Below are positions 16,488 through 22,386 of a DNA stretch of 43,614 nucleotides, piece by piece. Below the pieces are notes generated by a model, which ran no database searches, was not told the origin of the DNA, and saw only the letters and a list, made by a program, of their open reading frames with translations. Numbering within the stretch: position 1 is the first letter of the stretch; each line of letters starts with the position of its first letter. The stretch is from NCBI GenBank assembly GCA_019240115.1, contig JAFAYV010000026.1, positions 1-43,614 on the forward strand, in the 5' to 3' direction. The position numbers and the translations under genes were made by a program. Source of the DNA: Solirubrobacterales bacterium. GTDB taxonomy: Bacteria; Actinomycetota; Thermoleophilia; Solirubrobacterales; Solirubrobacteraceae.

Positions 16488-16700
16488 GTGAGCGACATCG
16501 CAGCCCATATCACGGGGACCGTGTGGAAGATCGCGGTCCAGGTCGGCGATCCGGTCGACGAGGGCGAGGCCCTCATCATCCTCGAGTCGATGAAGATGGA
16601 GATGCCGGTCGAGGCCGAGGAGGCCGGCGTCGTGGCCGAGATCCGCTGTAGCGAGGGACAGTCGGTGTCCGAGGGCGACACGCTCGTTGTCCTGCGCTAG
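16488..16700 (+). CDS. Stand-alone biotinyl/lipoyl carrier domain (BCCP-like)
   Basis: 70 aa, essentially one biotinyl domain: DIAAHITGTVWKIAV, then the biotin-accepting hairpin ILESMKMEMPVEA (Lys of MKM), and EGQSVSEGDTLVVL. It would carry carboxyl groups for an acyl-CoA carboxylase encoded elsewhere; no carboxylase genes occur in the window. ATG 16473 would add five residues but overlaps the TATGCT hexamer. The end overlaps the enoyl-CoA hydratase gene by 14 nt, tying it to acyl-CoA metabolism. Confidence 0.88.
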   Translation: MSDIAAHITGTVWKIAVQVGDPVDEGEALIILESMKMEMPVEAEEAGVVAEIRCSEGQSVSEGDTLVVLR

Positions 16701-17484
16701 CTCGACCGGACGGCTCCTCGTCGACGAGCCGGCGCCGCACGTCACCCGGCTGACGATCTCCCATCACGGCAAGCGCGGCGCGCTCGATCAGGCGATCCTC
16801 GACGCGGTCGCGGCCACCCTCCCCCGCCTGGACGCGCGCTGCGTCATCCTGACCGGCGAGGGCGACACGTTCTCGGCCGGCTACGACCTCGCGGCGCTCC
16901 GCGAGGAGGCGCTGCCCGTTGATGCCGAGCGGCTCGTCGCGCACCCGTTCGCCGCCGCCATCGACGCCGTCGCGACCCATCCCCGCCCGATCGTCGCCGC
17001 GCTGAACGGCTCGGCGATCGGCGGCGGGCTCGAGCTCGCGATCGCCTGCGACCTGCGGATCGCCTCGGCGGCGGCCCGGCTCGGGATGCCGCCGGCGAAG
17101 CTCGGCCTCGTCTACTCGCACACCGGCATCCGCAAGTTCATCGAGACGATCGGCGCCCCCCGCACCCGTGAGCTGTTCCTCGTCGGCGATGCGATCGACG
17201 CCGACACGGCGCTCGGCTGGGGGCTGGTCAACGCCGTCGCACCCGCCGGCGACCTGGCCGCGGCGGCGGTCGACCTCGCCCGGCGGATCGCCGCCAACGC
17301 CCCGCTCGCCCAGCGCGGCAACAAGCGCGTCATCACCGCCGTGCTCGACGAGGCGGCGGCGATCGCGCCGGCGATCGAGCGCGAGCTGCTGGCGCTGCGT
17401 GAGGCGAGCTTTGCCACCGAGGACTTCCGCGAGGGCGTGCGCGCGTTCGAGGAGAAGCGCGACCCCGAGTTCACCGGACGCTGA
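16687..17484 (+). CDS. Enoyl-CoA hydratase/isomerase (crotonase) family
   Basis: 265 aa from TTG 16687, the only usable start before the domain. Crotonase features: CVILTGEGDTFSAGYDLAAL with the CoA oxyanion pocket, IVAALNGSAIGGGLELAIACD, and LGLVYSHTGIRKFIETIG. The Glu pair of classic hydratases is not clearly present at the usual sites (position 2 reads LGMPPAKLGLVYS), so an isomerase or hydrolase activity is possible. Translationally linked to the biotinyl carrier upstream and 1 nt from the next gene. Confidence 0.85.
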   Translation: MSCASSTGRLLVDEPAPHVTRLTISHHGKRGALDQAILDAVAATLPRLDARCVILTGEGDTFSAGYDLAALREEALPVDAERLVAHPFAAAIDAVATHPRPIVAALNGSAIGGGLELAIACDLRIASAAARLGMPPAKLGLVYSHTGIRKFIETIGAPRTRELFLVGDAIDADTALGWGLVNAVAPAGDLAAAAVDLARRIAANAPLAQRGNKRVITAVLDEAAAIAPAIERELLALREASFATEDFREGVRAFEEKRDPEFTGR

Positions 17485-17485
17485 A

Positions 17486-18169
17486 TTGGCGGGCTGGAGC
17501 GCCGTCCGGCTCGGCGATCCGGCCGGTCCGCGGCTCGTCGTGTTCGTCCACGGGGGCTTCTGGCGCGCCCGGTTCGACGCCGCCTGGATCGCCGAGCTGG
17601 CCCACGCCTGGGCGCAGCGAGGCGATTGCGTGTGGAACCTCGAGTACCCGCGGGTCGGCATGCCGGGCGGAGGCTGGCCCGGGACCGCCGAGGCGGTCGG
17701 CGCGGCGGTCGAGGCGGCCCTGCGCGCCGCCGCCGGCCGCCCGGTGGCGCTCGTCGGCCACTCGGCGGGGGGGCACCTCGCCGCCTGGGCGGCGCGAGAC
17801 CGTCCCGTCGCTTCGGTCGTCTCGCTCGCGGGCGTCCTCGATCTGCGCCGCGCGCACGCCCAGCGGCTCGGTGCCTCGGCGGTCGCCGACCTCGCCGACG
17901 AGCGCGCGCCGGCCGGCGCGTTCTTCGCCGCCGCGAGCCCGATCGAGCGCCTCCCGCTCGGCTCGCCGGCGCTGCTCGTGCACGGCGACGCCGACGCCAA
18001 CGTTCCGATCGAGCAGAGCCGCCGCTACGCCGAGGCCGCTCGCGCGGCCGGGGACGTGTGCGAGCTCGTCGAGCTATCGGGAGCCGACCACTTCGCGATC
18101 ACCGACCCCTCGGGGCCGGCGTGGCCGGCGCTCGAGCGGTGGCTGGGCGGGTTGGGCGCAGACGGCTGA
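17486..18169 (+). CDS. Alpha/beta hydrolase with HGGXW motif
   Basis: 227 aa from TTG 17486, one base after the hydratase stop. VVFVHGGFWRARFD carries the HGGXW oxyanion motif typical of kynurenine formamidase and the HSL-like esterases, VALVGHSAGGHLAAW is the nucleophile elbow, and LLVHGDADANVPIEQS plus GADHFAI supply the likely Asp and His. A formamidase role would need tryptophan-degradation genes nearby, and none are present; 'esterase' is the safe call. Confidence 0.85.
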   Translation: MAGWSAVRLGDPAGPRLVVFVHGGFWRARFDAAWIAELAHAWAQRGDCVWNLEYPRVGMPGGGWPGTAEAVGAAVEAALRAAAGRPVALVGHSAGGHLAAWAARDRPVASVVSLAGVLDLRRAHAQRLGASAVADLADERAPAGAFFAAASPIERLPLGSPALLVHGDADANVPIEQSRRYAEAARAAGDVCELVELSGADHFAITDPSGPAWPALERWLGGLGADG

Positions 18170-18195
18170 GCGGCTGGGCGGAGTCGCCGCCGCGG

Positions 18196-18750
18196 CTACG
18201 CCGGGGTCTCCCGCGCGCGCTTGCGCTCGGCCTTCTGGGCGCGCTTGGCGGCCTGGTACTCGGCGAGCCCCTGCGGCGAATCGACGTCGCCGAGCGTCGG
18301 ATGCCGGGGAACGAGCGCGTCGGCGGCGGCGACGCCGAAGTGCCTGGACAGGACGGCGGCCAGCGAGGTCACCTTCATCTCGCCGAAGCCGGGCAGAGCC
18401 GCCAGCGCAGCACGCAGCTCGCCGGCGTCGGCGGCATCGCGCCACACCCCAGCGGCGTCGCCGCCGTACTCGCGCTCGATATGGACGGCGAGGTCGTGGA
18501 CGCGCTTGGCCATCGCCCCGGGGTAGCGGTGTACCGCGGGGCGCTCGCGGAACACCGCGTCGAGGTCGGCGCTCGCGAGCGTGCCGGCGTCGAGAGCGCC
18601 GACTCGCTCGCGGATGACGAGCGGCCCGCTGAACGCCTTCTGCACGGTCACCTGCTGGTCGAGCGAGAAGCCGACGAGCAGCGCCATCGGATCGGAGGCG
18701 ATGAGCGCGTTGGCCTCGTCTGACTCGGTGAAGCACAAGCGCTCGGGCAC
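18196..18750 (-). CDS. HhH-GPD family protein (uncharacterised DNA-glycosylase-like)
   Basis: 184 aa starting VPERLCFTESDEANALIASD. It follows the TIGR03252-type uncharacterised HhH-GPD family: DPMALLVGFSLDQQVTVQKA, FREVPAVHRYPGAM-like helices and the LAALPGFGEMKVTSLAAVLS hairpin-helix block. The family resembles base-excision glycosylases, yet no lesion is established. The C-terminus is basic (KRAQKAERKRARE). GTG 18750 is chosen because a TATCCT hexamer ends 9 nt upstream; the frame is open far upstream but only as antisense to another gene. Confidence 0.82.
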   Translation of the reverse strand: MPERLCFTESDEANALIASDPMALLVGFSLDQQVTVQKAFSGPLVIRERVGALDAGTLASADLDAVFRERPAVHRYPGAMAKRVHDLAVHIEREYGGDAAGVWRDAADAGELRAALAALPGFGEMKVTSLAAVLSRHFGVAAADALVPRHPTLGDVDSPQGLAEYQAAKRAQKAERKRARETPA

Positions 18751-18867: not shown

Positions 18868-20322
18868 ATGAGATCGATGGGCACCACGACGCGGCGGCCG
18901 GTGCGCCACGTGCGGCGCGGCGGCGTGCTGGCGCTGGGCTGCCTGGCGCTGACCGCCGGGGTGGCGGCGGCGGGCACCGGCGGAGCCAGAACCGGCACAC
19001 TCGCCGGAGGCGTGACCGCGCCGCTCGACGCCGCGGGCGCGACCGGTCCGGTCGCCGGCGCCACCGTGACCGTCACCGGGCCGGGCGGCATCGACCGCAC
19101 GACCTCCACCGCCGCCGACGGCCATTTCGAGTTCGACGGGCTGCCGGCTCCGGCGAGCTACTCGATCAGCGCCGCACTCGGGAGCGCACCCCCCCGGGCC
19201 GACGCGGGCGTCACGGTCCCCGCAGGCGGTCTGGCCGCCGCCGACCTCGGACTCGCCTCCCTCGCGGCGACGGTCACCGGGCAGGTCACCAGCGGCCACG
19301 GCTCGCCGCTGCCCGGCATGACGGTGGCGGCCGACCCGACGTCCCGCACGGCCTGCCCGACCGGGGCGCTCTGCGGTCCGAGCACGACGACCGGCTCCGA
19401 CGGGCGTTACACGCTGCACGTCGCGCCGGGCACCGACGCCGTGTCGGTCCTCGACGGCTCGCGCATCGTGACCGCCCGCGCCGTCGCGCTCCTCCCCGGG
19501 GCGATGACCCGCGCCGACGTCGCCCTGCCCGCTGCGCCGGTCCCGACCGACACCGCGGCGCGCAACTCGCGGCGCGACCTGCGGCTGCTCAACGCCGAGC
19601 GGACGCGGGTCGGGCTCCCCAGCGGCCTCGTGCTCAACGACCGATGGTCGCGCGAGTGCGCCGCCCACGACGACTACGAGCGGCTCAACCACCTGCTCAG
19701 CCACACCGAGAACCCTCGGGCTCCGGGAGCGTCCCCGGGCGGCGCGTGGGCGGCCCGGGTCAGTCTGCTCGCGCAGGCGCGCTGGACCGCGGCCGCCAAT
19801 CCCTGGGAGATGGCCCCGATCCACCTGTTGCAGCTGTTCACGCCGTCCCTGAGCGTGATCGGGATCGACGACGGCCACGGGCTGCAGTGCGCCACCGCCC
19901 CTCCGGGGACCGTCCGCCGACCGGTGTCGGCCGACACGATCTTCACCTATCCCGGCAACGGGACCCGCGGCGTGCCGCCGCGCGAGACCGCCGAGGAGTC
20001 CCCGTTCGTGCCCGGCCAATTCGTCGGCATCCCCGCCGGGCGGACCGCGGGCCGCGAGCTGTTCGTCTACCTCGACCTCGCCGGCCGGGCGGGGCAGGCC
20101 CCGGTCCGGGTGCTGCGCGCCTCGCTGTCGCGAGCGGGGCATCCGGTGACCGTACGCTGGGTGGACGACTTCACCCCGACCGTCGGGCAGTACCTGACCG
20201 GCGCGATCCTCATCCCGCCGCGCCCGCTCGCCGCCGGCACGACCTATCGGGCGTCGGTCACGGTGGCCGACCGCTCGGGCACCCTGAGCCACGCCTGGAG
20301 CTTTCGGACCGGTGCACCGTGA
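18868..20322 (+). CDS. Secreted CAP/SCP-like protein with two CNA-B-like domains
   Basis: 484 aa. The signal peptide has a long basic N-region and the core GVLALGCLALTAGVAAAG. Two carboxypeptidase-regulatory-like beta domains follow, about 48-130 (ATVTVTGPGGIDRTTSTAAD) and 133-215 (ATVTGQVTSGHGSPLPGMTV). A CAP-like domain covers about 230-350: DLRLLNAERTRVGLPSG, ECAAHDDYERLNH, LLSHTENPRAPG and MAPIHLLQLFTP. The last 120 residues form a beta-rich end. CAP domains are found in secreted binding or protease-like proteins; catalysis is not assured. Promoter TATAAG around 18808 and the ribosome site GGGGAG fit ATG 18868. Confidence 0.75.
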   Translation: MRSMGTTTRRPVRHVRRGGVLALGCLALTAGVAAAGTGGARTGTLAGGVTAPLDAAGATGPVAGATVTVTGPGGIDRTTSTAADGHFEFDGLPAPASYSISAALGSAPPRADAGVTVPAGGLAAADLGLASLAATVTGQVTSGHGSPLPGMTVAADPTSRTACPTGALCGPSTTTGSDGRYTLHVAPGTDAVSVLDGSRIVTARAVALLPGAMTRADVALPAAPVPTDTAARNSRRDLRLLNAERTRVGLPSGLVLNDRWSRECAAHDDYERLNHLLSHTENPRAPGASPGGAWAARVSLLAQARWTAAANPWEMAPIHLLQLFTPSLSVIGIDDGHGLQCATAPPGTVRRPVSADTIFTYPGNGTRGVPPRETAEESPFVPGQFVGIPAGRTAGRELFVYLDLAGRAGQAPVRVLRASLSRAGHPVTVRWVDDFTPTVGQYLTGAILIPPRPLAAGTTYRASVTVADRSGTLSHAWSFRTGAP

Positions 20323-20352: not shown

Positions 20353-21684
20353 ATGATCGAGATCGAGCCGCGGCTTGACGAGCTGAGCGCGCTAGGGCTC
20401 GGTCGGCGGTCTCGTCTCGTCAGCGGGCCCCAAGGCCCCCACGTGCTGGTCGACGGCCAGCCCGTCCTGCTGCTGTGCTCGGACAACCATCTCGGCCTCG
20501 CCGATCACCCCCGGCTGCGCCGGGCCGCCGCCGACGCGGCGGAGCGCTGGGGCGTCGGCGCGGGCGGATCGCGCCTCGTCGCCGGCACGATGACGATCCA
20601 CCGGCGGCTCGAGGAGCGCCTGGCGGGGGTCACCGGCCGCCATGCGTCGCTGCTGTTCGGCTCGCGTTTGCTGGCCAACGCCGGGGCGATCGCGGCGCTC
20701 GCCCGCCCCGGCGACGTGATCTTCGCCGACGAGGGCAACCACGCGTCGATCGCCGACGGCTGCCGGTTGTCGGGCGCCGAGGTCTTCCTCTACGGCCACG
20801 GCGACGTCGAGCACCTGCGATGGGGGATCGGCGAGGCCGGGGGTCGCGGGGCGCTCATCGTCTCCGAGAGCGTGTTCTCGATCGACGGCGAGGCCGCTCC
20901 GCTGATCGAGCTCGTCGAGCTCGCCTTGCGCTTCGGTCTGCGCACGGTCATCGACGAGACCCACGGGCTCGGCGCCTGCGGTCCCGGCGGCCGCGGGCTG
21001 CTCGCCGAGCTCGCGCTCGACGAGCAGGTCGACGTGATCGTCGGCTCGCTCGGCACCGCGCTCGGCGCCCACGGCGGGTTCGTCGCCTGCGATCAGACGA
21101 TGGCTCGCTATCTCGTCAACGCCGCATCGACCTTCGCCCACGCGACCGCGCTCGCGCCGCCGGTGGTCGCGGGCGCCCTCGCCGCGCTCGAGCTGCTCGC
21201 CGAGCGGCCCCGGATGGTGACGCGACTCGCGCTCAACGCCGCGGTCCTGCGCGCCGGCCTCGGCGAGGCGGGGTGGGCGGTCACCGGCGACCGCGGAGCG
21301 ATCATGTCGCTGCCGATCGGCGAGGCTCAGCGAGCCATCGGCCTCGCCGAGGCCGCCCTCGCCGCCGGCGTCTTCGTCGAGGCGATCCGGCCGCCGGCGG
21401 TGCCCGACGCGGCCTCCCGGGTCCGCCTCGCGGTCATGGCCACCCATCAGGCCTCCGAGCTCGGAGCCGCCGCCGCCACGTTGCGCGAGGCGGCGCGCTC
21501 GGTCGGCGTCGATCCCCGCTCTATGGCGAGGGTGTCCCACGACGAGGCGGGGCTGTGGACCGCCCGCGCAGGTCTCGGCGCCGACGGGGAGCCGGTGGCC
21601 GTGGACCCGGCCGCGACCGAGCTGACGGGAGCCACCGGGGTGTTCGACTTCGAAGCGCCCGAGCCGGCTCGCCGCGCGGCCTAG
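20353..21684 (+). CDS. AONS/BioF-like fold-type I protein lacking the PLP lysine
   Basis: 443 aa of the alpha-oxoamine synthase family (BioF, KBL, ALAS, SPT), which condenses an amino acid with an acyl-CoA. Nearly every family block is present: LCSDNHLGLADHP, WGVGAGGSRLVAGT, DEGNHASIADGCRLSG (His130, PLP-stacking), SVFSIDGEAAPL, VIDETHGLGACGPGGRG (Asp201, His204) and the post-lysine GGFVACDQ. The lysine that binds PLP, expected in a TxGKAxG context (Lys236 in E. coli BioF), is replaced: the sequence reads GSLGTALGAHGG, Thr235, codon ACC at 21055. Normal synthase chemistry should be impossible. There is also a 50-60 residue C-terminal extension. No other biotin gene is nearby; NUDIX follows at 63 nt. 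Confidence 0.85.
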   Translation: MIEIEPRLDELSALGLGRRSRLVSGPQGPHVLVDGQPVLLLCSDNHLGLADHPRLRRAAADAAERWGVGAGGSRLVAGTMTIHRRLEERLAGVTGRHASLLFGSRLLANAGAIAALARPGDVIFADEGNHASIADGCRLSGAEVFLYGHGDVEHLRWGIGEAGGRGALIVSESVFSIDGEAAPLIELVELALRFGLRTVIDETHGLGACGPGGRGLLAELALDEQVDVIVGSLGTALGAHGGFVACDQTMARYLVNAASTFAHATALAPPVVAGALAALELLAERPRMVTRLALNAAVLRAGLGEAGWAVTGDRGAIMSLPIGEAQRAIGLAEAALAAGVFVEAIRPPAVPDAASRVRLAVMATHQASELGAAAATLREAARSVGVDPRSMARVSHDEAGLWTARAGLGADGEPVAVDPAATELTGATGVFDFEAPEPARRAA

Positions 21685-21747: not shown

Positions 21748-22386
21748 GTGCAGGACGGACGGCCAGCTCCGGGCGAGGTGTTCCACGACGGTCCGGTGAC
21801 CGAGCCGCGGCGAGCCGCCACCGTCATCCTGCTGCGCGACGGCCCCGACGGGCTCGAGGTGCTGCTCGTCCAGCGCAACCCGAGGGCGCGCTTCATGGGC
21901 GGGGCGTGGGTGTTCCCCGGCGGGGCGGTCGACCCCGGGGAGGGGCACGGCGAGGCGGCCGTGCGCGCCGCCGGCGTGCGCGAGCTCAACGAGGAGGCGG
22001 GCATCGCCCTGCGCGATGCCGACGAGCTCGTGGCCTTCTCGCGCTGGATCACCCCCGCCCGCTCGAAGATCCGCTACGACACGGAGTTCTTCCTCGCGGC
22101 GCTCCCCGACGGCCAGGAGCCGCGGATCGACGGCTCGGAGATCGTTGCCGTGTGCTGGTCGACGCCGGCAGCGGCGCTCGACGCGGCGCATTCGGGCGAG
22201 ATGCTCCTCGTGTTCCCGACGATCAAGACCCTCGAGCAGCTCTCGGCCTTCACGTCGGTCGACGGGCTCGTCGGCCATGCGCGGGACCAGCCGGTGCGTG
22301 CGGTGGAGCCGCGCGTCGTCGGCGAGGGCGAGACCGCGCGGATCGTGCTGCCCGACGAGCGCCGCGGCGCCGCCCCGCCGTCCTGA
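21748..22386 (+). CDS. NUDIX hydrolase with expanded Nudix box
   Basis: 212 aa. The core follows RAATVILLRDGPDGLEVLLV, then WVFPGGAVDPGEGHGEAA and GVRELNEEAGI. Compared with the standard Gx5Ex7REUxEExGU, the gap between the first Glu and REL is 12 instead of 7 residues, as in NUDT19-like or CoA-pyrophosphatase-like members. The aromatic segment FSRWITPARSKIRYDTEFFL is shared with that subgroup. It would cleave a nucleoside diphosphate-X bond (CoA, ADP-ribose or NAD are candidates). Convergent with ccdA, 10-bp gap. Confidence 0.88.
   Translation: MQDGRPAPGEVFHDGPVTEPRRAATVILLRDGPDGLEVLLVQRNPRARFMGGAWVFPGGAVDPGEGHGEAAVRAAGVRELNEEAGIALRDADELVAFSRWITPARSKIRYDTEFFLAALPDGQEPRIDGSEIVAVCWSTPAAALDAAHSGEMLLVFPTIKTLEQLSAFTSVDGLVGHARDQPVRAVEPRVVGEGETARIVLPDERRGAAPPS

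What the first reader, a model, noticed from the sequence alone, without database searches (positions are those of the whole stretch)
20353..21684. AONS/BioF paralogue that has lost the PLP-binding lysine
Every other landmark of alpha-oxoamine synthases is intact, including His130, Asp201 and His204, but the Schiff-base lysine is Thr235 (codon ACC, 21055-21057). The frame is otherwise perfect, so this is not decay. Lysine-less fold-type I enzymes exist (ColD dehydratase uses His instead), so it may bind PLP or an aldimine and do new chemistry, or act as a non-catalytic partner of an active synthase.
Basis: partly seen in the sequence, partly recalled or inferred. Interest (0 to 1): 0.75.

Follow-up and report, generated by a model that had tools for sequence, protein, structure and literature searches.

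The report
Orphaned biotin enzyme without catalytic lysine
A soil actinobacterium that has lost the rest of its biotin-making genes has kept its BioF gene under natural selection although the protein no longer contains a single lysine, which suggests a dead enzyme reused for another job; relatives have done something similar several times.

Summary
In detail: at Lys236 (E. coli BioF numbering) the protein has Thr235 (ACC, 21055-21057), and its 443 residues contain no lysine at all. The claim that every other landmark is intact is wrong: N47D, G108R, A206T, T233S, R260S and S265A also changed.

It is the native BioF of a lost biotin operon, not an extra paralogue. Relatives carry ECH-bioB-bioF-bioD-bioA-NUDIX at this locus. 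Here bioB, bioD and bioA are gone, and the genome has the biotin transporter gene bioY instead. Of 118 orthologues, 113 keep Lys. Five, all in this genus, have T, S, M, G and G. They do not form one clade (AU p=0.001), so Lys was lost at least twice.

The gene is under purifying selection: dN/dS is 0.11 on this branch, and dN/dS=1 is rejected (2dlnL=56). Two Lys-less sister species have 0.09. All 20 orphaned BioF examined in the family have altered active sites (1-7 changes), against none at catalytic positions in 37 operon BioF.

Best reading: a BioF-derived pseudoenzyme that cannot form the Schiff base, kept for a structural, regulatory or partner role. What it does is not known. Precedents are SPT1/LCB1 (Lys-less) and chlamydial BioF_1 (orphaned, Lys kept).

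The parts
20353..21684 (+). Lysine-less BioF orthologue (443 aa, AONS fold type I), orphan of a lost biotin operon
21055..21057 (+). Codon 235 ACC (Thr) at the position of the PLP-binding Lys236 of E. coli BioF
20482..20484 (+). Residue 44 Asp (E. coli N47); N in 37 of 37 operon BioF
20665..20667 (+). Residue 105 Arg (E. coli G108, PLP phosphate cup by family knowledge)
20740..20742 (+). His130 retained (E. coli H133)
20953..20955 (+). Asp201 retained (E. coli D204)
20959..20961 (+). Residue 203 Thr (E. coli A206); changed to S or T in all five Lys-less proteins, in two lineages
20962..20964 (+). His204 retained (E. coli H207)
21142..21144 (+). Residue 264 Ala (E. coli S265)
21640..21681 (+). 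C-terminal tail VFDFEAPEPARRAA; [FY]D.E...AA motif kept in orphans and in operon BioF of the genus
16687..17484 (+). Enoyl-CoA hydratase (ECH) gene, the conserved upstream flank of the biotin operon
17626..18723 (+). Unknown ORF between ECH and BioF, also in G013 (47% over part of its length)
18868..20322 (+). CarboxypepD_reg-like protein in the place where relatives have bioB
21748..22386 (+). NUDIX hydrolase, the conserved downstream flank; relatives have bioD and bioA between BioF and this gene

Best explanation
The gene is the native bioF of an ancestral ECH-bioB-bioF-bioD-bioA operon. The lineage stopped making biotin, lost bioB, bioD and bioA, and takes biotin up through BioY, but kept bioF. 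Freed from KAPA synthesis, BioF lost its substrate- and PLP-binding residues including Lys236, while selection still holds the rest of the protein. Shown: orthology, operon loss, Lys loss in at least two lineages, no other lysine in this protein, continuing purifying selection, and altered active sites in every orphan examined. Inferred: it does not catalyse PLP chemistry (no internal aldimine is possible) and works as a pseudoenzyme, that is an AONS-fold protein used for binding or regulation, perhaps through its conserved C-terminal tail or with the co-retained ECH product. The partner and ligand are not identified; I give the non-catalytic role about 0.65 and any particular partner below 0.2.
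For: Synteny: ECH-[bioB]-bioF-[bioD-bioA]-NUDIX in operon relatives; ECH-bioF-NUDIX without bioB, bioD and bioA in G000, G013, G018, G007, G022 and G023. No bioB, bioA or bioD over cut-off in G000, G013, G022 and G023. BioY is found in 9 of 28 genus genomes, none with bioB over cut-off, and G000 is one of them. Lys kept in 113 of 118 orthologues; T, S, M, G and G in five; they do not form one clade, AU p=0.00135. Zero lysines in P0001. Codon ML: omega 0.066 background, 0.110 G000, 0.174 G013, 0.087 G022+G023; omega=1 rejected with 2dlnL 56 for the G000 branch alone. G022-G023 differ by 3.7, 5.2 and 19.8% at codon positions 1, 2 and 3. 20 of 20 orphans have 1-7 deviations at 15 active-site positions; of 37 operon BioF, two have only S107A. 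In this protein 6 of 13 changes at near-invariant columns fall on 13 pocket columns out of 87, p=0.003.
Against: No expression, structure or binding data. The AlphaFold model is poor (mean pLDDT 53.7, 4-sequence alignment). The G000 branch includes time before Lys was lost, so its omega of 0.11 cannot exclude relaxation at the very end of the branch. Omega is about 1.5-2.6 times background in the Lys-less lineages, so constraint is weaker. Several relatives that lost the operon lost bioF as well, so the retained role is dispensable in the genus. H133, D204, H207 and S179 remain here, so PLP or PMP could still bind non-covalently. The orphan-versus-operon counts are not independent samples: they stand for several lineages, not 20 events.
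Confidence: 0.68

Rival explanations
1. Recently dead relic: bioF lost its function with the operon and is drifting; the frame survives because GC-rich genes gain few stop codons.
For: The neutral simulation keeps a stop-free frame in 1-35% of runs, indels not simulated; omega is raised in the Lys-less lineages; other genus members have lost bioF entirely.
Against: omega=1 rejected for clade 1 (2dlnL about 166), clade 2 (about 569) and the G000 branch alone (56) (with the free fit). Branches G022 and G023, wholly after the Lys loss, have omega 0.087 and a five-fold third-position excess. Changes at near-invariant columns of G000 concentrate in the pocket.
Confidence: 0.12
2. Active without the lysine: the protein binds PLP or an external aldimine non-covalently and does new chemistry.
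For: H133, D204, H207, S179 and R349 are retained in this protein. Orphans in genus g40 keep Lys with a stable, shared new pocket (R21Q, N47G, Y49A, S76A, S128H, S179G, N257H), so repurposed catalysis is likely somewhere in the family.
Against: The replacement differs in each lineage (T, S, M, G), so no substituted base is conserved. PLP-binding residues are lost in related orphans (G007 H133G and H207D, G013 H207S, G086 D204G). A206 is changed in all five Lys-less proteins.
Confidence: 0.13
3. LCB1-type partner: the Lys-less subunit pairs with the second AONS of the cell (serine-palmitoyltransferase-like, contig C13) as SPT1 pairs with SPT2.
For: SPT1 lacks the PLP lysine and is needed for activity (PMC6148460). 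G000 has an SPT-like AONS with Lys at 37% identity.
Against: SPT-like copies also occur in genus members that have no BioF orthologue and in members with a normal one, so they do not need it. The gene is a BioF orthologue and not an SPT1 relative.
Confidence: 0.05
4. Sequencing or assembly error at codon 235.
For: The window comes from a draft assembly of 99 contigs.
Against: AAG to ACC needs two base changes; four other genomes lack Lys at the same site; linked pocket changes occur in the same gene.
Confidence: 0.02

Closest known systems
BioF, 8-amino-7-oxononanoate (KAPA) synthase (E. coli BioF; TIGR00858)
   Same: Orthologous by sequence, tree and synteny; same length of catalytic domain; H133, D204, H207 and R349 retained
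   Different: No PLP lysine, no lysine at all; N47, G108, A206, T233 and S265 changed; no biotin pathway in the genome
SPT1/LCB1, the lysine-less subunit of eukaryotic serine palmitoyltransferase (PMC6148460)
   Same: An alpha-oxoamine synthase homologue that lacks the PLP lysine and is kept by selection
   Different: Arose from a different AOS branch, membrane-bound heterodimer; here no partner is known
Chlamydial BioF_1 (PMC3459881)
   Same: BioF-like protein kept in species without biotin synthesis, beside BioY; proposed by its authors to have another role
   Different: Keeps the catalytic lysine according to that paper's supplementary legend; lies outside the biotin operon
ColD (GDP-4-keto-6-deoxymannose 3-dehydratase; from own knowledge)
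   Same: Fold type I protein without the Schiff-base lysine
   Different: ColD has a conserved His in its place and is active; here the residue is not conserved (T, S, M, G)

Membership tests
BioF (KAPA synthase) as a sequence family | Orthology to BioF by profile, tree and synteny | tested here: met
   the TIGR00858 score of 361 bits is below the 426-bit equivalog cut-off
BioF (KAPA synthase) as a function | Schiff-base lysine (E. coli K236) | tested here: not met
   Thr235; no lysine in the protein
BioF (KAPA synthase) as a function | BioA, BioD and BioB in the same genome | tested here: not met
   None over the curated cut-offs in G000
BioF (KAPA synthase) as a function | KAPA synthase activity | not testable with these tools
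   Needs an enzyme assay or complementation of an E. coli bioF deletion
Pseudoenzyme | Loss of a residue essential for catalysis | tested here: met
Pseudoenzyme | Purifying selection after the loss | tested here: met
   G022 and G023 branches, omega 0.087; codon-position differences. For G000 itself the branch also covers time before the loss
Pseudoenzyme | A demonstrated non-catalytic role | not testable with these tools
   No partner or ligand known
SPT1/LCB1-like subunit | Closer kinship to SPT1 than to BioF, and an obligate SPT2 partner | tested here: not met
   BioF/KBL chains 230 bits against 109 bits for SPT1 chains; SPT-like AONS occurs without it

The most novel reading that the evidence does not exclude
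BioF in this family of Solirubrobacterales carries a second function that does not need the PLP lysine. It outlives biotin synthesis and has been set free in several lineages (window genus, genera g31, g32 and g40), some of which became lysine-less pseudoenzymes while others acquired a stable new pocket.
Probability: 0.35. Interest if true: 0.75.

Novelty: new variant of a known kind. Interest (0 to 1): 0.6.

Why it matters
It gives a clear natural series from a working vitamin enzyme to orphaned, altered and finally lysine-less forms within one bacterial family, with operon loss, transporter gain and codon-level selection all visible. It makes testable how a metabolic enzyme survives the loss of its pathway. 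It is also a warning for annotation: such genes are readily named biotin synthesis genes in organisms that cannot make biotin.

Tried and rejected
Paralogue idea: rejected by synteny. Stop-free frame as proof of selection: tested by simulation and found weak. C-terminal [FY]D.E...AA tail as a general sorting or degradation signal: a genus-wide pattern search found mainly BioF tails plus hits that look like chance or unrelated conserved genes, with a reversed-pattern control of similar order. AlphaFold model: mean pLDDT 53.7 with four sequences, too poor for a fold search, so none was run. One clade of all seven genus orphans: not rejected (AU p=0.225), so the number of operon losses inside the genus is open; one clade of the five Lys-less proteins was rejected. 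The grouping of G000 with G013 and G019a is supported in the 48-row tree but unresolved in the 24-row tree. Literature searches found no report of a Lys-less BioF in the held papers. ECH co-retention: 7 of 7 genus orphans have the ECH orthologue against 4 of 13 genus members without native BioF, suggestive but confounded by kinship.

Full report
What is there. The frame at 20353-21684 (+) encodes 443 aa with the full AONS domain: TIGR00858 bioF 361 bits, cut-off 426, and solved AONS chains up to 230 bits. Codon 235 (21055-21057) is ACC, Thr, where E. coli BioF has K236. The protein has no lysine at all, so no other side chain can form the usual internal aldimine.

Relatives. I aligned 118 orthologues from the family and order with E. 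coli BioF. Lys is present in 113. The five without it are all in the window's genus: G000 T, G013 S, G019 M, G022 G and G023 G. Holding the five together as one clade is rejected (AU p=0.00135), so the loss happened at least twice. In the 48-row tree G022 and G023 sit with G018 and G007, which keep Lys but have lost R349 and, in G007, H133 and H207. A206 is changed to Ser or Thr in all five Lys-less proteins, in both lineages.

Genome context. In operon-bearing genus members the order is PlsC, YbjQ, small ORF, AKR, ECH, bioB, bioF, bioD, bioA, NUDIX. In G000, G013, G018, G007, G022 and G023 bioB, bioD and bioA are missing from this place while ECH, bioF and NUDIX remain. In G016, G026 and others bioF is gone too. 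G000, G013, G022 and G023 have no bioB, bioA or bioD over the curated cut-offs anywhere. BioY is found in nine genus genomes, G000 among them, and in none of the genus genomes with bioB over cut-off. The window's organism is therefore most likely a biotin auxotroph with uptake. G019 keeps a complete set with a second, Lys-bearing BioF next to bioA on another contig.

Selection. Fixing omega at 1 costs 2dlnL of 56 for G000 alone, about 166 for clade 1 and about 569 for clade 2. A separate omega for the orphans improves on one omega by 2dlnL 12.5, so constraint is somewhat relaxed. G022 and G023, whose terminal branches lie wholly after the Lys loss, differ at 3.7, 5.2 and 19.8% of codon positions 1, 2 and 3; NG86 dN/dS is 0.17, like operon BioF of the genus. 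Synonymous sites are close to saturation between the more distant pairs, so the omega values are approximate; the rejection of omega=1 is the solid part. The open frame alone would be weak evidence: neutral simulation without indels keeps it stop-free in 1-35% of runs.

Wider pattern. In genera g31, g32 and g40 native BioF also stands beside ECH without bioB, bioD or bioA at the loci read. bioB is absent from G079, G080, G081, G085, G086 and G087, or lies with a second BioF in G078 and G156-G162. Scoring 15 active-site positions chosen from knowledge of AONS, all 20 orphans deviate at 1-7 of them. Of 37 operon BioF, two carry S107A and the rest none. These are not 20 independent events. g40 orphans keep Lys and share one new pocket across at least six species with dN/dS about 0.09-0.20, which looks like a new enzyme and not a dead one.

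Interpretation. Lysine, substrate and cofactor residues were given up after the pathway was lost, while the rest of the protein stayed under selection. That is the signature of a pseudoenzyme. Which role it has is unknown. The conserved C-terminal tail [FY]D.E...AA and the co-retention of ECH (7 of 7 genus orphans) are the only leads; both are suggestive, and the second is confounded by kinship. Lys-less relatives of the fold are known (SPT1, PMC6148460), and so is a BioF-like protein kept without biotin synthesis (chlamydial BioF_1, PMC3459881). The combination, a lysine-less BioF orthologue under purifying selection, was not found in the papers searched.

Noticed in passing
21640-21681: C-terminal tail [FY]D.E...[RH]AA after a variable, probably disordered linker is kept in nearly all BioF of the genus and in many of the family (87 of 118 end in AA), orphaned or not.
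   Followed up: partly
L240, L241, L242, L243, L244, L247: Native BioF in genera g31, g32 and g40 is also orphaned beside ECH but keeps Lys; g40 orphans share a stable new pocket (R21Q, N47G, Y49A, S76A, S128H, S179G, N257H).
   Followed up: partly
L090, L246, L248, L249: A second, distinct biotin gene set (bioF and bioA on one contig and a divergent bioB on another in G019; bioF, bioB and bioA together in G155 and G158) seems to have replaced the native operon in several genomes.
   Followed up: partly
L145-L148 and G000:C30:10706-11134: BioY is found only in genus members without bioB over the cut-off; six such members have neither.
   Followed up: yes
17626-18723 and 18868-20322: An ORF without Pfam match (also in G013) and a CarboxypepD_reg protein stand between ECH and BioF where relatives have bioB.
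   Followed up: partly
L002, L112 (G000:C13): Genus members carry a serine-palmitoyltransferase-like AONS with Lys; its neighbourhood was fetched but not read.
   Followed up: no
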